Source of the DNA: Betaproteobacteria bacterium
GTDB taxonomy: Bacteria > Pseudomonadota > Gammaproteobacteria > Burkholderiales > Burkholderiaceae_D
DNA: 64,000 bases
Assembly (NCBI GenBank): GCA_025356395.1
Contig: JANXTA010000062.1
Location: forward strand, 1-64,000
Reading direction: 5' to 3'
Every line of letters begins with the position of its first letter. The stretch's first letter is position 1. Shown piece by piece: positions 1,635-9,958 of the stretch. The notes under the pieces were generated by a model, which saw only the letters and a program-made list of their open reading frames with translations, was not told where the DNA came from and searched no databases. The position numbers and the translations under genes were made by a program.

Positions 1635-3128
1635 TCACTGCGGCGTCCCCCAGCCGCCGCCCAACGACCGGATCAGCGCCACGGTCGTCGTCGCGCGACT
1701 GCCGCGCAACTGAACCGCCTGGCGCTGCACCGACAACAGCTCGCGCTGCGCATCGATGGACTCGAGATACCCGGTCTGTCCCGCGCGATAACGCTTCTCG
1801 GCGAGGTCCGCGGCCCGGCGCGCCGAGGCTACGGCCTCGTCGGTCGCGAGCGCTTGACCACCGAGCGTGCGCAGGCCGACCAGGTTGTCCTCGACCTCGG
1901 CGAAGGCCACCAGCACCTTCTGTCGGTAGACCCCCACCGACTCCTCGAGTCCCGCTTCCGCGCGCCGGATGTTGGCCTTGTTGCGACCACCGTCGACGAT
2001 CGGCAACGACATCACCGCACCGATCAGCCACATCGTGCTGTTGAGCTTGAAGAGGTCCGACAACTGATACGACTCGGCCCCGCCCTGCCCGGTCAGCGAC
2101 AGCGCCGGAAAGATCGCCGACTTCGCGACACCGATGCGCGCGTTGGCCGCGAACATCTGTTGCTGGGCTGCGGCGATGTCCGGACGACGTTCGAGCAGCG
2201 ACGAGGGAAGACCCGCCGGCACGATCGGCACGTTCGACCCGTCCATCAGCGGATTGACGCCGAAGTCGAAGCCGGCCGGTGCGCGACCGAGCAGCACCGC
2301 AAGCGCGTGCTCGGCCACGGCGCGTTGCCGCTCGATGCCGATCGCGTCAGACTGCGCGGTGGCGCGTTCCGTGCGCGCCCGCGACAGGTCGATCTCACTG
2401 ATGTCGCCGGCGTTGAAGCGACTCTCGGCGAGCTTGACGTTGTCTTCGCGCAGCCGCACGGTCTCCTTCAGCAACGCAAATTCGGCGTCGGACTCGCGCA
2501 CGCGGTAGTAGGTCTGCGCGACGTCGGCCTGTAACGCGAGCAGCACCGAGCGATAGGTCGCCTCGGTGGCGTTCGCATCGGCCTTCGTCGCGTTGACGTT
2601 GTTGGCGACGCGACCGAACAGGTCGACCTCGTAGCTCGCGCTCAGGCCTGCCTGGAAGAAGTTGCTGGTCGGCACCTTCGCGCCTTGCGGGACGCCGAAC
2701 GTCGCATCCGAGCTGCGACCCCGCAAGGCCTGTGCACCCGCGTTGATCTGCGGATAGCGGTCGGCTTCGGCGACGCCGAGCAGCGCACGCGCCTGCCTGA
2801 CGCGTGCCGCAGCGGCCTGCAGGTCGCCGTTCGCCGCGACCGCCTCGGCTTCGAGCGCATCGAGCGCCGGGTCACCGAACGCGGTCCACCAGGCGCCGCG
2901 CGGCAAGGCTTCGGACGGCTGCGCGAGCTTCCAGCGACCCTGTGTCAACGCGTCGAGATCAGGCGTCGAGACGGCGATCGACGCCACGCCGCGGCTTTCC
3001 TTGAAGGTTGTCGGGCTGGCTACTTCGGGCTGATGGAAGTCGGGTGCGGCGCACCCTGCGACGATCACCAGTGCCATCAAGGTCGCCGACAGACGGACCT
3101 TGCCATTCAGATGCGAGAACGTATTCAT
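1635..3128 (-). CDS. RND efflux outer-membrane channel lipoprotein (NodT/OprM/OpcM type)
   Basis: Trimeric TolC-like exit duct of a tripartite drug efflux pump, 497 residues, a usual length. The N-terminus is a lipoprotein signal with lipobox IVAGC (Cys26 after cleavage), followed by two OEP repeat halves rich in alanine and leucine heptads (for example ALLGVAEADRYPQI, ERRPDIAAAEQQ-like ERRPDIAAAQQQ). The ATG at 3128 overlaps the stop of the upstream pump gene as TGATG, so translation is coupled; a TTG one codon earlier is a less likely start. It is the last gene of the leftward operon lipase-like/adaptor/pump/channel, an order seen in the Burkholderia ceo operon, where the channel is OpcM. 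Confidence 0.93.
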   Translation of the reverse strand: MNTFSHLNGKVRLSATLMALVIVAGCAAPDFHQPEVASPTTFKESRGVASIAVSTPDLDALTQGRWKLAQPSEALPRGAWWTAFGDPALDALEAEAVAANGDLQAAAARVRQARALLGVAEADRYPQINAGAQALRGRSSDATFGVPQGAKVPTSNFFQAGLSASYEVDLFGRVANNVNATKADANATEATYRSVLLALQADVAQTYYRVRESDAEFALLKETVRLREDNVKLAESRFNAGDISEIDLSRARTERATAQSDAIGIERQRAVAEHALAVLLGRAPAGFDFGVNPLMDGSNVPIVPAGLPSSLLERRPDIAAAQQQMFAANARIGVAKSAIFPALSLTGQGGAESYQLSDLFKLNSTMWLIGAVMSLPIVDGGRNKANIRRAEAGLEESVGVYRQKVLVAFAEVEDNLVGLRTLGGQALATDEAVASARRAADLAEKRYRAGQTGYLESIDAQRELLSVQRQAVQLRGSRATTTVALIRSLGGGWGTPQ

Positions 3129-6100
3129 CAATGCGCTCCTTCGATGCCGATAGCCGCATGCGCCTTCGTCAGCTTGCCGCCGAAGCGCTGCGCGAGCTTG
3201 CGCAACAGCACGTAGAAAACCGGGGTGAGGATCAGGCCGAAGAAGGTCACGCCGAGCATGCCGGCGAACACCGCCACACCCATCGCATGACGCATCTCGG
3301 AACCCGCGCCCGACGAGAAGACCAGCGGCAGCACGCCCATGATGAAAGCGAACGACGTCATCAGGATCGGGCGCAGCCGCAGGCGGCAGGCTTCGAGCGC
3401 GGCCTCGACCACCGAGCGTCCCGCATGCTCGAGGTCACGCGCGAACTCGACGATCAGGATCGCGTTCTTCGACGCCAGCCCGACCAGCACGAACAGCGCG
3501 ATCTGCGTGAAGATGTTGTTGTCGCCGCCGGTCAGCTTGACGCCGAGCAGCGCGCACAGGATCGACATCGGCACGATCAGGATCACGGCCAGCGGCAGCG
3601 TCCAGCTCTCGTACTGCGCGGCCAGCACCAGGAACACCAGCAGCACGCAGATCGGGAACACGATCAGCATCGTGTTGCCGGCGATGATGTCCTGGAAGGT
3701 CAGGTCGGTCCACTCGTAGCTCACGCCTTTCGGCAGGGTCTCGTCGAGCACCTTCCCCATCGCGACCTGCGCCTGTCCACTCGACACGCCAGCGGCTGCG
3801 CCGCCGTTGATGTCGGCCGCGGTGTACGCGTTGTAGCGCTGCACCTTGTCCGGACCATAGGTGTCCTTAAGTCACATCAGGCTCGACAGCTGGACCATCT
3901 CGCCCTTGCCGTTCTTGACCTTCATCTGGCCAAGGTCCTGCGCATGCGAACGGAACTGCTCGTCCTCCTGCACGATGACCTGGTAGGTCCGGCCGAACTT
4001 GTTGAAGTCGTTGACGTACAGCGACCCGAGGTTGATTTGCATCGTGCTGAAGATGTCGCCGAGCGGCACGCCGAGCTGCTTGGCCTTCGTGCGATCGACG
4101 TCTGCGAAGAGCTGCGGCACGTTGACCTGGAAGCTCGAAAACACACCCGCGAGTTCGGGCGTCTGCGCGGCCTTGGCCTGCACGGCACCGATCGCCTTGT
4201 AGAGCTCGTCGTAGCCGACGTTGCCGCGGTCCTCGACATAGAGCTTGAAGCCACCGATGGTGCCGAGCCCATTCACCGGCGGCGGCGGGAAGACCATGAT
4301 GATCGCGTCGCTGATGGACGCCAGCTGCTGGTTGATCTTCTGCGCGATCGCGGGCCCGGACAAGGCCTTGCCCCTGCGCTGATCGAAGTCCTTCAGTGTG
4401 AAGAACACGATGCCGGCGTTGGGCGCGTTGACGAAGCCGTTGATCGACAGGCCCGGAAACGCGACCGACGACTCGACGCCTTCGGTCTTGAGGCCGATGT
4501 CGCTCATGCGACGGATCACGTCCTCGGTGCGGTCGAGCGATGCGGCGTCGGGCAATTGCGCGAAGCCGACCAGGTATTGCTTGTCCTGACCGGGGACGAA
4601 GCCCGCGGGCACCGACCGGAACACAAAGAAGGCGACGACGATCAGGATCGCGTAGACCACCATCGTGGCCGACTTGCGCTTGAGCACACCGTTGACGGTG
4701 CCTTCGTACCGGTGCGCGCCGCGAATGAAGACCGTATTGAAGCGCCGGAAGAACCCGCCCAGCACCTTGTCCATGCCGCGTGCGAGCCAGTCCTTCGGCG
4801 CGTCGTGCGGCTTGAGCAGCGTGGCCGCGAGGGCCGGCGACAGCGTCAGCGAGTTGATCGCCGAGATTACCGTCGAGATCGCGATGGTCAGCGCGAACTG
4901 GCGATAGAACTCGCCGGTCAGGCCGGACACGAACGCGATCGGCACGAACACCGCACACAGCACCAGCGCGATCGCGATGATCGGACCGCTCACTTCCTTC
5001 ATCGCCTGGATCGTCGCGTCGTGTGGCGACAGGCCCATGGCGATGTTGCGTTCGACGTTCTCGACCACGACGATCGAGTCGTCCACCACGATCCCGATCG
5101 CGAGCACCAACCCGAACAGCGACAGCGTGTTGATCGAGAAGCCGAAGCCGAGCATCACCGCGAACGTGCCGATGATCGACACCGGCACCGCGAGCAGCGG
5201 GATGATCGACGCGCGCCAGGTCTGCAGGAACACGATCACCACCAGCACCACCAGCGCGACCGCTTCGAGCAGCGTCTCGACGACCGCTTGGATCGACGAG
5301 CGCACGAACTGCGTCGGGTCGTAGACGATGCTGTAGTCGACGCCCTTCGGGAAATCTTTCTTCAGCTCTTCCATCGTCTTGCGGACGTTGTCGGAGATCT
5401 GCAGCGCGTTCGCGCCGGGCGCCTCGAAGATCGGGATCGCCACCGCCGGCTTGTTGTTGAGCAGCGAGCGCAACGCGTATTCGGACGCGCCCATCTCGAT
5501 GCGCGCGACGTCCTTCAGGCGCGTCACGGCACCATCCTCACCACCGGCCTTGACGATGATGTCGCCGAACTGTTCCTCGCTCGACAGGCGACCGAGCGCG
5601 TTGACCGAGAGCTGGAACTGCGCGTCCTTGGTCGGCGAGCCGCCGACCACGCCGGCGGCGACCTGCACGTTCTGCTCGCGGATCGCCGCGACGACTTCGG
5701 GTGCGGTGATGCCGCGCGCGGCGAGCTTCTGCGGATCGATCCACACCCGCATCGCGTAGTCACCGGAACCGAAGAGTTAGACCTGCCCGATGCCGGGCAG
5801 GCGCGCGAGGCGGTCCTTGACGTTGAGCACCGCGTAGTTGCGCAGGTAGATCTCGTCGTAGCTCTCGTCCGGAGACTTGAGGTGGACGACCATCGTCAGG
5901 TTGGGCGAGCTCTTGATCGTCGTGACACCGATCGTCCGCACTTCCTCCGGCAAGCGCGGCAGCGCGCGCTGCACGCGGTTCTGCACCTGCGTCTCGGCCT
6001 GCTCGACGTCGGTGCCGATCTTGAACGTGACGGTCAGAGTGAGCACGCCGTCGGCGGTGGCCTGCGAGGACATGTAGAGCATGTTCTCGACGCCGTTGAT

Positions 6101-6310
6101 CTGCTCCTCGAGCGGCGTCGCGACGGTCTCGGCGATCACGGTCGGATTGGCGCCCGGATATTGCGCGTGCACGACGATCGACGGCGGCACGACGTCCGGG
6201 TACTCGGACACCGGCAGCCGGAACATCGCCAGCAGTCCGCCGACGAAGATGATGATCGACATGACGGCCGCGAAGATCGGTCGGTCGATGAAGAATCTCG
6301 AGATGTTCAT
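3128..6310 (-). pseudogene. RND efflux pump (CeoB/MexF-like), interrupted by two in-frame stops
   Basis: Inner-membrane proton/drug antiporter of the HAE1 (AcrB) family; its full reading of 1060 codons has a normal length. ATG at 6310 follows AGGGG. The N-terminus (NISRFFIDRPIFAAVMS), the VVDDSIVVVENVERN segment of TM4 with its paired aspartates and the GLASKNAILIVEFA segment of TM10 are all present. Two stops break one continuous frame. TAA at 5777-5779 sits in IGQV-stop-LFGSGDYAM, where the family has Gln. TGA at 3872-3874 sits in SSLM-stop-LKDTYGPD. CAA-to-TAA and CGA-to-TGA single changes would explain both. There is no frameshift. Unless the stops are sequencing errors or are read through, the pump is not made, although the adaptor and channel genes are intact. 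Confidence 0.88.
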
Positions 6311-6438: not shown

Positions 6439-7695
6439 TCAGCGTGCGGGCGCTGCGTCTTTCCTGCCGGCGCCCGACGCGCCGTCGCCTTGTGCGCTCT
6501 TCGCCGGATCGTCGCTGGTCGCGCCGCGTGCGACGGTCGCTTCCATCTTCACGACCTGCGGTGCGATCGGCGTACCGGGTCGCACGCGCTGCAGGCCGTT
6601 GACGATGATCTGATCGCCAGGCTTGAGGCCGCTGCGAACGACACGAAGGCCTTCGATCACCGGACCGAGCTTCACGGCGCGGTATTCGGCCTTGAAGCTC
6701 TTGCCGTCCTCGCCGACCGGGGTCGACACGAAGACGAACTTGCGGTCCTGGTCGGTGCCGATCGCGCGGTCCGCGACGAGCACGACCTTCGACGACTGGT
6801 CGCCACCGCCGATCAACACGCGGGCGAAGCGTCCCGCCGCCATCAGACCGTCCTTGTTGTCGAGCAGAGCACGCATGCCCACGCTGCCAGTACCGGCATC
6901 GACTCGGTTGTCGATGAACTCGAGCTTGCCGACGTGCGGGAAGCCGTCCTCGCCAACCAGGCCGACGTTGACCGTCGTGTTGAGCGCGCGGACCGGGCCG
7001 CCGAGGCGGGCGAATGTCTGCTCGTCGCCGTCGAAGCTCGCGTAGATCGGATCGGACGACACGACCGAGGTCAGCACGACCGACGGATCGACCAGGTTGC
7101 CGACCGTGACCTCAGCCTTCGACACGCGGCCAGCGATCGGCGCGCGGACCTGCGTGAACTCAAGGTTGAGCTGCGCGAGGTCGGCCGTGGCGCGGGCCGC
7201 GCGCGCGTCGGCGTCGAGCTGCTTGGTGTCGGCGAGGCGCTCGTCGTAGTCGCGTTGCGCGATGGCGTTGTCGGCCAGCAGGCGCTTCGAGCGTTCGAGC
7301 TGCGTCTTCGCGAGTTCGATCTTGGCGACCGCGCTCACCGCAGCGGCTTCGGCGCGTGCGGCCTCGGCGCGATACGGACGCGGATCGATCACCACCAGCA
7401 CGTCACCCTTCCTGACGACGGCGCCGGGCGTGAAGCGCACGGCATCGATGGTCCCCGAGACGCGCGGACGGATGTCGGCGTGATCGACGGCTTCGATGCG
7501 ACCCGAGAACTCCTGGGTCTCGACGACGTCGCGCTCGATCGCCGCGGCCACGCTGACCGGAGGCGCCGAGGGCGGCGCGGTCTGCGCCACGGTGTCGGTG
7601 CAGGCGGAAAAGACGAAGGGCATGGTGGCGGCGAACGCCAGCAGCGCGAGGCTCGCGTGGCGACGATGGCGGCTGGAGGAGGAGAGGGTCGTCAT
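6439..7695 (-). CDS. RND efflux periplasmic adaptor (membrane fusion protein, CeoA/MexE type)
   Basis: Periplasmic adaptor linking the pump to the outer-membrane channel, 418 residues. ATG at 7695 follows AGGGAA. An N-terminal signal ends in VFSAC (Cys32), suggesting lipid anchoring. Then come the barrel-sandwich/lipoyl halves (PRVSGTIDAVRFTPGAVVRKG and VRAPIAGRVSKAEVTVGN), separated by an alpha-helical hairpin (about residues 115-180), and a beta-barrel with VNVGLVGEDGFPHVGKLEF. The C-terminus is Lys/Ala rich. It lies 65 bases downstream of the lipase-like gene and 128 bases upstream of the pump gene in the same direction. No defect is seen. Confidence 0.92.
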   Translation of the reverse strand: MTTLSSSSRHRRHASLALLAFAATMPFVFSACTDTVAQTAPPSAPPVSVAAAIERDVVETQEFSGRIEAVDHADIRPRVSGTIDAVRFTPGAVVRKGDVLVVIDPRPYRAEAARAEAAAVSAVAKIELAKTQLERSKRLLADNAIAQRDYDERLADTKQLDADARAARATADLAQLNLEFTQVRAPIAGRVSKAEVTVGNLVDPSVVLTSVVSSDPIYASFDGDEQTFARLGGPVRALNTTVNVGLVGEDGFPHVGKLEFIDNRVDAGTGSVGMRALLDNKDGLMAAGRFARVLIGGGDQSSKVVLVADRAIGTDQDRKFVFVSTPVGEDGKSFKAEYRAVKLGPVIEGLRVVRSGLKPGDQIIVNGLQRVRPGTPIAPQVVKMEATVARGATSDDPAKSAQGDGASGAGRKDAAPAR

Positions 7696-7760: not shown

Positions 7761-8627
7761 TCATGAAACGGAAGCGATGAACGAAGCCATCGCGGCGAAG
7801 GAGGTGTCGTCGGACGAGGCGCGACATCGCGCGTTGGCGTCGACCAGGGAACAGGCTTCGGTCGGCACCGCCATCACGAAGGTCTGTACCGAGACACCGG
7901 CGGCGAGCAGCTTGGCGACGTAGGCATCGGCCTCGTCGCGCAGCGGATCGCCGGCGATCGACACCATCAGCGTCGGCGGCAGACCCTTGAGGCGCGTTGA
8001 CGCGAGCGGGCAGGCATAGGGATGGAAGCGGTCCGACGGGCGCGGCAGGTATTCGCGATAGCCCTCGGCGCACACCGAAGCGATCTGCGCGTCGACGTCC
8101 TTGGCGGCCGCGGAGCGCATCGAGCAACTGGTCAGGCCCGGGTCGAGCATCGGCGAGATCAGCAGCTGCCCGGCGAGCGGCGGGCCGCCGCGATCGCGAG
8201 CCATCAGCGCGGCTACGGCCGCGAGATTGCCGCCGGCCTCGACGCCGCCGACGACGAGACGTTTGCCAGTCCATTGATAGCGGCGCGGATGTGCGGCGCA
8301 GTCGGCGATCGCGGCATACGCGTCCTCGGCGGCCGCCGGGAACGGCTGGTCGGGCGCCTGGGTGTACGTCGGCGCCAGCAGTGCCGCGTCGATGCGAGAC
8401 GCGAGGTCGCGCATGCAGCCATCGCTTTCCTCCAGGCTGCCCGACGTGAAACCGCCCGCGTGGAAGAACACGACCAGCGTGTCCGCGAGGCCCGTGCTGC
8501 GCGCCTTCGCGCGATACAGGCGAGCATCCAGCGGACCCGACGGCCCCTCGATCGACAGCACCCGCACGTCGACGGGGATGTCGATTTCGGTGCAACTCAT
8601 CCGATCCGGAGCCGTCTTCATGGTCAT
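7761..8627 (-). CDS. LlpE-like alpha/beta-hydrolase pseudoenzyme of the efflux operon
   Basis: Protein of the hormone-sensitive-lipase fold (288 residues) lying between the small exported protein and the efflux adaptor, the place occupied by llpE in the Burkholderia cenocepacia ceo operon (established knowledge). The oxyanion motif (FFHAGGF, residues 54-60) and the DPLRDEADAY acidic region (Asp227) are kept. The nucleophile elbow, normally GDSAGGN, reads GVEAGGN, with Glu130 in place of Ser. The usual terminal HGF is replaced by PTEACS (about 255-260), so no catalytic His is visible. It is therefore probably inactive as an esterase, with a binding or regulatory role at most (inference). ATG at 8627 overlaps the upstream stop as ATGA, indicating translational coupling; a second ATG at 8621 is possible. 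Confidence 0.8.
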   Translation of the reverse strand: MTMKTAPDRMSCTEIDIPVDVRVLSIEGPSGPLDARLYRAKARSTGLADTLVVFFHAGGFTSGSLEESDGCMRDLASRIDAALLAPTYTQAPDQPFPAAAEDAYAAIADCAAHPRRYQWTGKRLVVGGVEAGGNLAAVAALMARDRGGPPLAGQLLISPMLDPGLTSCSMRSAAAKDVDAQIASVCAEGYREYLPRPSDRFHPYACPLASTRLKGLPPTLMVSIAGDPLRDEADAYVAKLLAAGVSVQTFVMAVPTEACSLVDANARCRASSDDTSFAAMASFIASVS

Positions 8628-8902
8628 GCCTTGACCAACGATGCAGCAGGCACGGTCGAGGCGCCGACCGAGACGTCGTTGGCCGCCGCGGCATGCGGTT
8701 CGGCCACGGCGACCTGCGGGCTGCAGGTCAGCGGCTTGCCGCCGACCGTGGCCAGGGCTTCGAAGCCCTGGCATTCGGCCGCCATGATGCGGGCGGCCGG
8801 GACGTGCAGGTCGGCGGAGATCGACTGGCCGAGCGCGATGGCGCCCAGGCCGATCGCGATCAGGAGGGCGATGGTGTTGCGGAGTTTGATGGGGGAGCTC
8901 AT
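8624..8902 (-). CDS. Small exported or membrane-anchored protein, first gene of the efflux operon
   Basis: A 92-residue protein I do not recognise. The N-terminus is a short basic stretch and one hydrophobic segment (NTIALLIAIGLGAIALG), which could be a signal peptide or an anchor. The rest is Ala/Val rich with two cysteines (ECQGFEA and LTCSPQV) that could form a disulfide in the periplasm. ATG at 8902 was chosen; a GTG two codons upstream (8908) is the alternative. Its TGA overlaps the start of the lipase-like gene (ATGA), which supports a real, co-translated gene. As promoter-proximal gene of the operon it would be made whenever the pump is induced. Confidence 0.68.
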   Translation of the reverse strand: MSSPIKLRNTIALLIAIGLGAIALGQSISADLHVPAARIMAAECQGFEALATVGGKPLTCSPQVAVAEPHAAAANDVSVGASTVPAASLVKA

Positions 8903-9001: not shown

Positions 9002-9958
9002 ATGAACAAGTTGCAAGCGATGGAAGTGTTCGTTCGGGTGGTCGACACGGGCGGGTTTACCCGGGCGTCGGAGAGCCTGGGCATGCCCAAGGCCACCGTC
9101 ACGACGTCGATTCGCGACCTCGAAACGCTGCTGAAGGTCAGGTTGCTCAATCGCACGACGCGGAAAGTCGCGGTCACCACCGACGGCGCCGCCTACTACG
9201 AACGCTGCGTGGCGATCCTCGATCAGGTGCGCGATGCCGAGGAGTCGCTGTCCACCGACCACGCGTCGGTCAGCGGGCGCCTGCGGGTTGACGTCGCGAC
9301 CCTGTTCGCGCGGGTCAAACTGATCCCCGTGATGCACGAATTCCAGGCGCGCTTCCCGGCGATCCGCCTCGAACTCGGCTGCAGCGACCGGCCGGTGAAC
9401 CTGGTGGAACAGGGGGTCGACTGCGCGCTGCGCGGTGGACCGATCGTCGACCAGAACCTGATCGCGCGACGCGTCGGCACGATGCACTTCATCAACTGCG
9501 CGACGCCCGGCTACTTCGCGAAACACGGCCGACCGGTGCATCCGCGCGACCTGGCCGATCACGTGTGCCTCAACTACTTCTCGACGACGACCGGTCGCAC
9601 CTTCGAATGGGACTTCGAGAAGGACGGCGAGCAGTTCAAGCTGGCGCTGGAAGGGCCGTTGTCGCTCAACGATTCGAGCGTGTACTACGACGCCTGCCTC
9701 GCCGGTCTCGGCATCGCGCAGCTCACCACCAGCACCGTCCGCAAGCACATCGAGAGCGGCGAACTCGAGATCGCGCTCGGCAACTGGCTGCCCGAGCCGA
9801 TGCCGATCCACATCGTCTATCCACTCAACCGCAACCTCTCGAACAAGGTCCGGGTCTTCGTCGAATGGCTCGCCGAGTTGTTCGAGAGCGACGAACAACT
9901 CGCGCTCCACTCGGCGCTGCCGGCTGCGGGTGTATCCGTGCAGCCAGTACCCGCCTGA
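9002..9958 (+). CDS. LysR-type regulator, probable regulator of the divergent efflux operon (CeoR-like position)
   Basis: DNA-binding activator/repressor of 318 residues. The N-terminal winged helix-turn-helix (FVRVVDTGGFTRASESLGMP, about residues 10-29, and RLLNRTTRKV) is followed by a periplasmic-binding-fold effector domain of the class with VDCALRGGPI and NLSNKVRVFVEW motifs. It is transcribed away from the efflux operon, the classic arrangement for a LysR regulator controlling its neighbour; ceoR holds this place in the ceo operon. AGGAA eight bases before ATG is the ribosome-binding site. The gene is intact. The effector is unknown; salicylate-like phenolics induce the ceo pump, but that need not hold here. 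Confidence 0.88.
   Translation: MNKLQAMEVFVRVVDTGGFTRASESLGMPKATVTTSIRDLETLLKVRLLNRTTRKVAVTTDGAAYYERCVAILDQVRDAEESLSTDHASVSGRLRVDVATLFARVKLIPVMHEFQARFPAIRLELGCSDRPVNLVEQGVDCALRGGPIVDQNLIARRVGTMHFINCATPGYFAKHGRPVHPRDLADHVCLNYFSTTTGRTFEWDFEKDGEQFKLALEGPLSLNDSSVYYDACLAGLGIAQLTTSTVRKHIESGELEIALGNWLPEPMPIHIVYPLNRNLSNKVRVFVEWLAELFESDEQLALHSALPAAGVSVQPVPA

What the first reader, a model, noticed from the sequence alone, without database searches (positions are those of the whole stretch)
7761..8627. Efflux-operon lipase-like protein has lost its catalytic Ser and His
The nucleophile elbow reads GVEAGG (Glu130) and the usual terminal His motif is PTEACS, while the oxyanion loop and acidic residue remain. 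The gene is intact and translation-coupled, so it seems to be kept as a non-enzymatic protein, perhaps binding the pump's inducer or substrate.
Basis: partly seen in the sequence, partly recalled or inferred. Interest (0 to 1): 0.6.

Follow-up and report, generated by a model that had tools for sequence, protein, structure and literature searches.

The report
Efflux-operon lipase relatives without serine
A lipase-like protein encoded beside a drug-efflux pump has lost the serine that makes lipases work, and so have all the relatives of its kind that were examined, although they stay conserved; they probably sense, bind or transform a chemical by another route and are not lipases.

Summary
The gene (window 8627-7761, minus strand) encodes a 288-aa hormone-sensitive-lipase (HSL) fold protein with Glu130 at the nucleophile elbow and no His in the C-terminal catalytic loop. 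It is an LlpE, the protein of the Burkholderia ceo/bpeEF operons. Of 252 distinct homologue cores, 155 form the LlpE group: 129 Glu, 24 Asp, 2 Gln, no Ser; the other 97 HSLs are 96 Ser and 1 Gly. LlpE lies on one side of a single tree branch, also with the elbow residue masked (support 95 and 94). Starting from the pump gene, no Ser-type hydrolase turned up upstream of 50 pump loci. Asp-type LlpE, including B. cenocepacia and B. multivorans (GHDAGG), keeps His and Asp in 24 of 24, an apparent Asp-His-Asp triad; the Glu-type keeps no conserved His. LlpE goes with a divergent LysR gene in 147 of 153 cores; six Glu-type copies precede flavoenzymes, not a pump. Many Glu-type llpE genes have a small membrane-helix protein just upstream. 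Best reading: the Glu-type is a conserved non-serine-hydrolase, probably a ligand-binding part of a LysR-controlled xenobiotic response; the Asp-type may be a carboxylate-nucleophile enzyme. Function is inferred, not shown.

The parts
7761..8627 (-). llpE, Glu-type LlpE, HSL-fold protein of 288 aa
   Evidence: (PF07859, 3.5e-51)
8238..8240 (-). codon of Glu130, at the nucleophile elbow in place of Ser
   Evidence: Glu in 129, Asp in 24, Gln in 2, Ser in 0 of 155 LlpE cores
7947..7949 (-). codon of Asp227, the retained catalytic-acid position
   Evidence: Asp in 129 of 130 Glu-type, 24 of 24 Asp-type, 1 of 2 Gln-type and 94 of 94 Ser-type rows counted
8624..8902 (-). unlabelled small protein of 92 aa with one likely membrane helix (hydropathy only); its stop overlaps the llpE start (ATGA)
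9002..9958 (+). divergent LysR-type regulator gene
   Evidence: PF00126, PF03466; a divergent LysR match within 1.5 kb at 147 of 153 LlpE cores with enough upstream sequence
6439..7695 (-). membrane-fusion protein gene of an RND pump
   Evidence: 42-81% identical to the membrane-fusion proteins found after 142 other llpE cores
3128..6310 (-). RND transporter gene, interrupted in this assembly by two in-frame stop codons (5779-5777 and 3874-3872)
   Evidence: the relative G008 has no stop at the first place
1635..3131 (-). outer-membrane channel gene of the pump
   Evidence: 43-63% identical to outer-membrane factors found after 90 other llpE cores

Best explanation
LlpE is an offshoot of the HSL esterases that gave up the serine nucleophile, most simply once near its origin, and no examined member has it back. 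Shown: the elbow residue is Glu, Asp or Gln in every LlpE examined, never Ser; the fold and (with two exceptions) the acid position are kept; the Glu-type also lacks a conserved catalytic His and, from the modelled secondary structure of the window protein, the N-terminal cap helices; the gene is under purifying selection; it travels with a divergent LysR gene, usually in front of a MexEF/CeoAB-type pump and sometimes in front of a flavoenzyme; many Glu-type copies have a small membrane protein just upstream. Inferred: the Glu-type in this window does not hydrolyse esters; it binds a small electrophilic or aromatic ligand in the old active site, much as the HSL-derived receptor GID1 binds its hormone, and passes that on within a LysR-controlled xenobiotic response, perhaps at the membrane through the small protein. 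The Asp-type of Burkholderia and others, which keeps His and Asp, may still be an enzyme, with Asp as the nucleophile.
For: Elbow residue by group. No Ser-type hydrolase upstream of 50 pump loci; the 16 upstream hydrolases there are 7 Glu, 8 Asp, 1 Gln. Tree: E/D/Q rows on one side of one branch, S/G on the other, support 95, and 94 with the elbow residue masked; 4 label changes, the minimum. His column: 24 of 24 Asp-type, 94 of 94 Ser-type, 7 of 130 Glu-type, 0 of 2 Gln-type. LlpE-specific invariants: His202 and Arg212 in 71 of 71 representatives against 9% and 4% of 78 Ser-HSL representatives. dN/dS 0.35. Confident HSL fold with no helix before residue 19; Foldseek and VIA-align rank HSL esterases first. 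Divergent LysR at 147 of 153 LlpE cores and at 0 of 97 others. Six Glu-type copies before luciferase-like or Old Yellow Enzyme flavoproteins, five of them with GTP cyclohydrolase II next. GID1 precedent: HSL-derived, catalytic His lost, non-catalytic receptor (PMC3531792, passages). In P. aeruginosa MexT controls both MexEF-OprN and the operon of the xenobiotic reductase XenB (PMC7950407, passages); that XenB belongs to the Old Yellow Enzyme family is recalled.
Against: No binding, activity or expression data exist here. LlpE deletion is reported to leave BpeEF-OprC function and specificity for known antibiotics unchanged (PMC4396416, PMC5587915, passages, the latter citing unpublished data); the B. 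pseudomallei protein was not examined here. The Asp-type keeps the full acid-His-Asp set, which speaks against a family-wide non-enzymatic role. In 23 of 130 Glu-type rows some His occurs in the stretch after the last strand; one, L203, has it near the right place. Pocket shape could not be computed: coordinates of the model were not available. The pump gene in this very window carries two in-frame stops, so here the pump may not work.
Confidence: 0.5

Rival explanations
1. LlpE is a carboxylate-nucleophile enzyme: the Asp-type works like epoxide hydrolases and haloacetate dehalogenases (Asp attacks an electrophilic carbon, His-Asp then frees the product) and protects against the same electrophiles that the pump exports; the Glu-type is a slowed or single-turnover derivative.
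For: Asp-type has Asp, His and Asp in 24 of 24, in Burkholderia as GHDAGG. In another alpha/beta hydrolase an S101D change raised dehalogenase and cut esterase activity, and in the esterase-dehalogenase REBr a Glu elsewhere in the active site is reported as the dehalogenation nucleophile (PMC13230308, passages). Neighbouring flavoenzymes and MexT-type biology fit electrophile stress.
Against: The Glu-type of this window has no His in that loop to release a covalent intermediate. The best structural matches are Ser esterases of the HSL group. No Asp-nucleophile enzyme of the HSL group is known to me (recalled; one search returned no paper for the term set used).
Confidence: 0.2
2. The Glu is a general base in a non-hydrolytic reaction (elimination, isomerisation, decarboxylation), so LlpE is an enzyme of another class.
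For: Glu is the elbow residue of 129 cores, with a retained oxyanion glycine (Gly58, 130 of 130) and acid (129 of 130).
Against: Position 130 also tolerates Asp and Gln within the family; no substrate or pathway gene points to such a reaction.
Confidence: 0.12
3. LlpE is a structural partner: it docks on the small membrane protein or on the pump and does not use the old active site.
For: The small protein was found in 40 of 141 family genomes, and all 40 matches lie just upstream of an LlpE match.
Against: The small protein was not detected at Asp-type (0 of 23) or Gln-type (0 of 2) loci; residues at the old active site stay conserved.
Confidence: 0.12
4. LlpE is a decaying relic carried along in the operon.
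For: Loss of Ser, His and cap; reported deletion without effect on the pump.
Against: dN/dS 0.35, many invariant residues, no return to Ser and a persistent acidic or amide residue at the elbow.
Confidence: 0.04

Closest known systems
LlpE of the ceo and bpeEF-oprC operons (Burkholderia)
   Same: same operon place (divergent LysR, llpE, membrane-fusion, RND and outer-membrane genes), same HSL group, no Ser at the elbow
   Different: B. cenocepacia and B. multivorans LlpE read GHDAGG and keep the catalytic His; the window protein has Glu and no His, 41.5% and 43.5% identity over the matched part. The passages read call LlpE a putative lipase/carboxyl esterase
GID1, the gibberellin receptor derived from HSLs
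   Same: HSL fold turned non-catalytic with loss of the catalytic His (PMC3531792, passages)
   Different: GID1 keeps the Ser; it is a plant protein; ligand binding of LlpE is untested
EstDL136, chloramphenicol hydrolase (6AAE, 6IEY)
   Same: top VIA-align match (Z 35.7, rmsd 4.0, 274 aligned), about one Z unit above the next HSL; MexEF-OprN exports chloramphenicol (PMC7950407, passages)
   Different: EstDL136 has a Ser156-His282-Asp252 triad and a 40-residue cap (PMC6333409, passages); the NCBIfam chloramphenicol hydrolase cut-off is not met (131 of 500 bits); Foldseek ranks EST2 first
Asp-nucleophile alpha/beta hydrolases (epoxide hydrolases, fluoroacetate dehalogenase)
   Same: Asp-type LlpE shows Asp-His-Asp at the equivalent places
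   Different: different subfamily; the window protein has Glu and lacks the His

Membership tests
catalytic HSL serine hydrolases (Abhydrolase_3) | alpha/beta-hydrolase fold of the HSL type | tested here: met
   PF07859 at 3.5e-51; Foldseek E about 1e-22 and VIA Z about 34-36 to HSL esterases
catalytic HSL serine hydrolases (Abhydrolase_3) | Ser nucleophile in GDSAGG/GxSxG | tested here: not met
   Glu130; Ser in 0 of 155 LlpE cores against 96 of 97 other HSL cores
catalytic HSL serine hydrolases (Abhydrolase_3) | catalytic His after the last strand | tested here: not met
   no His in the window loop; His column 94 of 94 in Ser-type, 7 of 130 in Glu-type
catalytic HSL serine hydrolases (Abhydrolase_3) | catalytic Asp and oxyanion-hole glycines | tested here: met
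   Asp227 and Gly58-Gly59 kept; the preceding Gly is Ala57 here and varies in Glu-type (Gly in 76 of 130)
LlpE family | HSL homologue between a divergent LysR gene and a CeoAB/MexEF-type pump | tested here: met
   window gene order; in a B. cenocepacia record the match lies directly before ceoA and ceoB
LlpE family | groups with Burkholderia LlpE apart from other HSLs | tested here: met
   separating branch SH-aLRT 95, and 94 with the elbow residue masked; short searches, many inner forks weak
NCBIfam LipP1 and chloramphenicol hydrolase | curated score cut-off | tested here: not met
   196.9 of 350 and 131.4 of 500 bits
Asp-nucleophile alpha/beta hydrolases | Asp nucleophile with His and acid | tested here: not met
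   Glu and no His in the window protein; the feature is present in Asp-type LlpE (24 of 24)
GID1-like receptors | binds a small ligand without turnover | not testable with these tools
   no ligand or coordinate data

The most novel reading that the evidence does not exclude
Glu-type LlpE is a natural single-use electrophile trap or sensor: a carboxylate nucleophile in an alpha/beta-hydrolase elbow, without the His that would free the product, forms a stable covalent ester with an electrophile, as the engineered HaloTag does, and the loaded protein signals within the LysR-controlled pump or flavoenzyme response; the Asp-type with His is the turning-over version.
Probability: 0.08. Interest if true: 0.9.

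Novelty: new variant of a known kind. Interest (0 to 1): 0.62.

Why it matters
A 2015 review says that LlpE's association with this pump is unique, that it is probably an enzyme and that it deserves study (PMC4396416, passages). The present result says that no LlpE examined here carries the nucleophile of a serine lipase or esterase, and it splits the family into an Asp-His-Asp form and a Glu form without a conserved His, each with a direct test. It also shows that llpE goes with the LysR gene and, in Oxalobacteraceae above all, with a small membrane protein, so the unit to study is larger than the pump. I found no statement of the missing serine in the passages read or in the listings; the library lacks most subscription papers, and I did not see the original LlpE reports.

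Tried and rejected
Decaying pseudogene: thought unlikely on dN/dS and conservation. Sequencing oddity: rejected because 128 other distinct cores have Glu. Ser-type HSLs beside the same pump: looked for and not found; the two Ser rows with an RND match nearby (L266, L273) match at 24-26% identity about 3.4 kb away behind an outer-membrane gene, a different operon.

Circularity: the profile A1 held only E/D/Q rows, so I also started from the pump's membrane-fusion protein. Of 54 matches in 250 genomes, 50 loci were examined and 16 had an HSL gene upstream: 7 Glu, 8 Asp, 1 Gln, 0 Ser. One is the window itself, and by their places (compared by eye) all 16 were already in the first set, so this adds no new LlpE, only that no Ser-type was met at a pump. 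Thirty of the 50 loci hold only about 1.4-1.65 kb upstream, and at least one llpE lying further off (L172, whose genome has a membrane-fusion match about 1.4 kb downstream) was missed that way.

The sample is not random: 80 loci are the best 80 kept by one capped scan, 8 of 49 plasmid records were opened, and not every match was fetched; Oxalobacteraceae are over-represented. Rows dropped before counts: L004 and L005 (weak paralogues of the own genome) and L012 (fragment, merged with its full copy L075) were left out. One search counts 130 Glu rows where one search counts 129 cores, because rows were made distinct on different stretches.

One search's value for the small ORF was computed in a wrong frame and is discarded; one search replaces it (170 close pairs, median dN/dS 0.29). 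Of 93 small ORFs found in 129 Glu loci, two (L020, L165) were dropped as spurious. Five Glu cores without a pump found (L019, L029, L030, L171, L172) are held with at most about 1.5 kb downstream; L172 has the match just named, while for L171's genome the only membrane-fusion match listed lies elsewhere and no LysR was found. The first tree kept the elbow column in; one search repeats it with that residue masked. Literature searches returned nothing. GID1 does not appear in the shown rows; this shows nothing either way. The review cited for HaloTag words the residue change the other way round (PMC9119580, passage); that the original His is replaced is recalled.

Full report
What is there. The gene runs from 8627 to 7761 on the minus strand and encodes 288 aa. 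Pfam gives Abhydrolase_3 at 3.5e-51. The elbow reads GVEAGG with Glu130, the oxyanion loop HAGG, the acid motif GDPLRDE, and the loop after the last strand holds no His. AlphaFold2 with 46 sequences gave pLDDT 88.5 and pTM 0.89; Glu130 lies at the turn between strand 119-129 and helix 131-145, residues 1-18 show no helix, and the best matches are HSL esterases. The HSL EstDL136 has a 40-residue cap there (PMC6333409, passages), so the N-terminal cap seems reduced; this is inferred from the secondary structure only.

Surroundings. Upstream and divergent is a LysR gene (9002-9958, plus strand); downstream are genes for a membrane-fusion protein, an RND transporter and an outer-membrane channel, placed by similarity to those after other llpE genes, the order of ceo/bpeEF. 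A 92-aa ORF (8902-8624) overlaps the llpE start by ATGA. The RND gene holds two in-frame stops; the relative G008 has none at the first place. They may be real or assembly errors. The genome is an unnamed assembly of 4.47 Mb in 175 contigs; its nearest llpE, 70-73% identical, is from a MAG called uncultured Burkholderiales bacterium, and the named relatives listed are mostly Oxalobacteraceae genera.

Is the loss of Ser general? I collected homologues from genomes of the host's family, order, class and phylum (regions), from 8 plasmid records and from GTDB genomes (capped at 80), and aligned 277 rows with 252 distinct cores. The LlpE group has 155 cores: Glu 129, Asp 24, Gln 2, Ser 0. The remaining 97 HSLs are Ser 96 and Gly 1. 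A membrane-fusion or RND match was found just downstream of 144 of 155 LlpE cores, and near 2 of 97 others (weak matches, a different operon). On a tree of 112 representatives the E, D and Q rows lie on one side of a branch with SH-aLRT 95; with the elbow residue masked the branch remains, at 94. In both trees the labels need 4 changes, the minimum. These are short searches with 42 and 39 of 109 inner branches weakly supported, so the order in which Glu, Asp and Gln arose is open.

Because the profile contained only Ser-less rows, I also started from the window's membrane-fusion protein: of 54 matches in 250 genomes of the order, 50 loci were examined; 16 had an HSL gene upstream, 7 Glu, 8 Asp, 1 Gln and no Ser. 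By their places these 16 were already in the first set, so the gain is that no pump locus showed a Ser-type hydrolase. In most pump loci (34 of 50) no HSL was found within the sequence held.

Two kinds of LlpE. Asp-type: Burkholderia cenocepacia and B. multivorans, Mycetohabitans rhizoxinica and a Caballeronia read GHDAGG, Azospirillum ramasamyi GYDAGG, others GDDAGG; His and Asp are kept in 24 of 24. Glu-type: Oxalobacteraceae, Aquabacterium, two Cupriavidus, Comamonas endophytica and others. Its His column holds H in 7 of 130, in PLHES, PLHET or ELHDN contexts that I judge not homologous; 23 of 130 have some His in the whole stretch after the last strand, and one distant row, L203, reads SHWPEA near the right place. 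In the Glu-type the Gly before the two oxyanion glycines is kept in 76 of 130 rows, against 94 of 94 Ser-type. LlpE representatives share His202 and Arg212 (71 of 71; 9% and 4% of 78 Ser-type representatives). Arg267 is common in the Glu-type (116 of 130), on a helix after the old His loop; whether it meets Glu130 is unknown.

Selection. Against the nearest relative dN/dS is 0.35 for llpE, 0.33 for the membrane-fusion gene and 0.16 for lysR.

What it travels with. With at least 1.4 kb upstream held, a divergent match to the window's LysR was found at 147 of 153 LlpE cores and at none of 97 other HSLs. Eleven Glu-type cores had no pump found; six of them (L007, L020, L035, L036, L052, L054) are followed instead by a luciferase-like monooxygenase or an Old Yellow Enzyme flavoprotein, five of these with GTP cyclohydrolase II next; the flanks of the other five are too short to tell, and one of those, L172, has a membrane-fusion match about 1.4 kb off. 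In P. aeruginosa the LysR regulator MexT, described as redox-responsive to electrophilic and nitrosative stress, controls both MexEF-OprN and the operon of the xenobiotic reductase XenB (PMC7950407, passages), a suggestive parallel (that XenB is of the Old Yellow Enzyme family is recalled).

The small protein. An ORF of 55-114 aa (median 74; starts uncertain) with a hydrophobic helix lies just upstream of llpE at 93 of 129 Glu-type loci scanned (two judged spurious), 0 of 23 Asp-type, 0 of 2 Gln-type and 3 of 96 Ser-type (unrelated). Its core is a helix followed by roughly TDxYSxAAxAExxGxxAL; 170 close pairs have a median dN/dS of 0.29, 99% below 1. A genome-wide profile search found it in 40 of 141 family genomes, once each, and all 40 matches lie between 21 nt of overlap and 126 nt upstream of an LlpE match. 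No Pfam match was found for the window copy and no NCBIfam match for 11 members.

Reading. Serine hydrolysis by LlpE at the usual place is excluded by the residue itself. For the Glu-type I think a ligand-binding role most likely (0.5): the fold and acid are kept, Ser, His and cap are lost, conservation is strong, and HSLs have become receptors before (GID1, PMC3531792, passages). The module context suggests electrophilic or aromatic xenobiotics; this is inference. For the Asp-type, catalysis with an Asp nucleophile is a serious possibility: a Ser-to-Asp change in another alpha/beta hydrolase shifted it from esterase towards dehalogenase (PMC13230308, passages). Joining the two gives the boldest reading, a covalent trap in the Glu-type, like HaloTag (PMC9119580, passage). 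Against a pump role stands the report that LlpE deletion does not change BpeEF-OprC function for known antibiotics (PMC4396416, PMC5587915, passages). An older paper calls LlpE periplasmic (PMC1557404, passages); I see no signal-like stretch at the start of the window protein, by eye only.

Known or new. LlpE is known and named. The family-wide loss of Ser, the Asp/Glu split and the small upstream protein were not mentioned in the passages I read nor in the listings; I did not see the original LlpE papers, so prior mention cannot be excluded.

Noticed in passing
window 8902-8624, minus strand: Small unlabelled protein with one likely membrane helix, coupled to llpE by ATGA overlap; all 40 matches in 141 family genomes lie just upstream of an LlpE match.
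   Followed up: partly
window 5779-5777 and 3874-3872, minus strand: Two in-frame stop codons in the RND transporter gene of this assembly; a relative lacks the first.
   Followed up: partly
L035, L036, L007 (same locus as L074), L020, L052, L054: LysR and Glu-type llpE followed by a luciferase-like or Old Yellow Enzyme flavoprotein, in five of the six with GTP cyclohydrolase II next, and no pump found.
   Followed up: partly
L065, L070, L067, L068: LlpE of B. cenocepacia, B. multivorans, Mycetohabitans and Caballeronia reads GHDAGG with His and Asp kept, like an Asp-nucleophile triad.
   Followed up: partly
L072 (Azospirillum ramasamyi plasmid): An alphaproteobacterial Asp-type llpE before a pump, with no LysR found upstream but type I secretion genes.
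   Followed up: no
L263: A non-LlpE HSL with Gly at the elbow (GDGAGG), the only other Ser-less core in the set.
   Followed up: no
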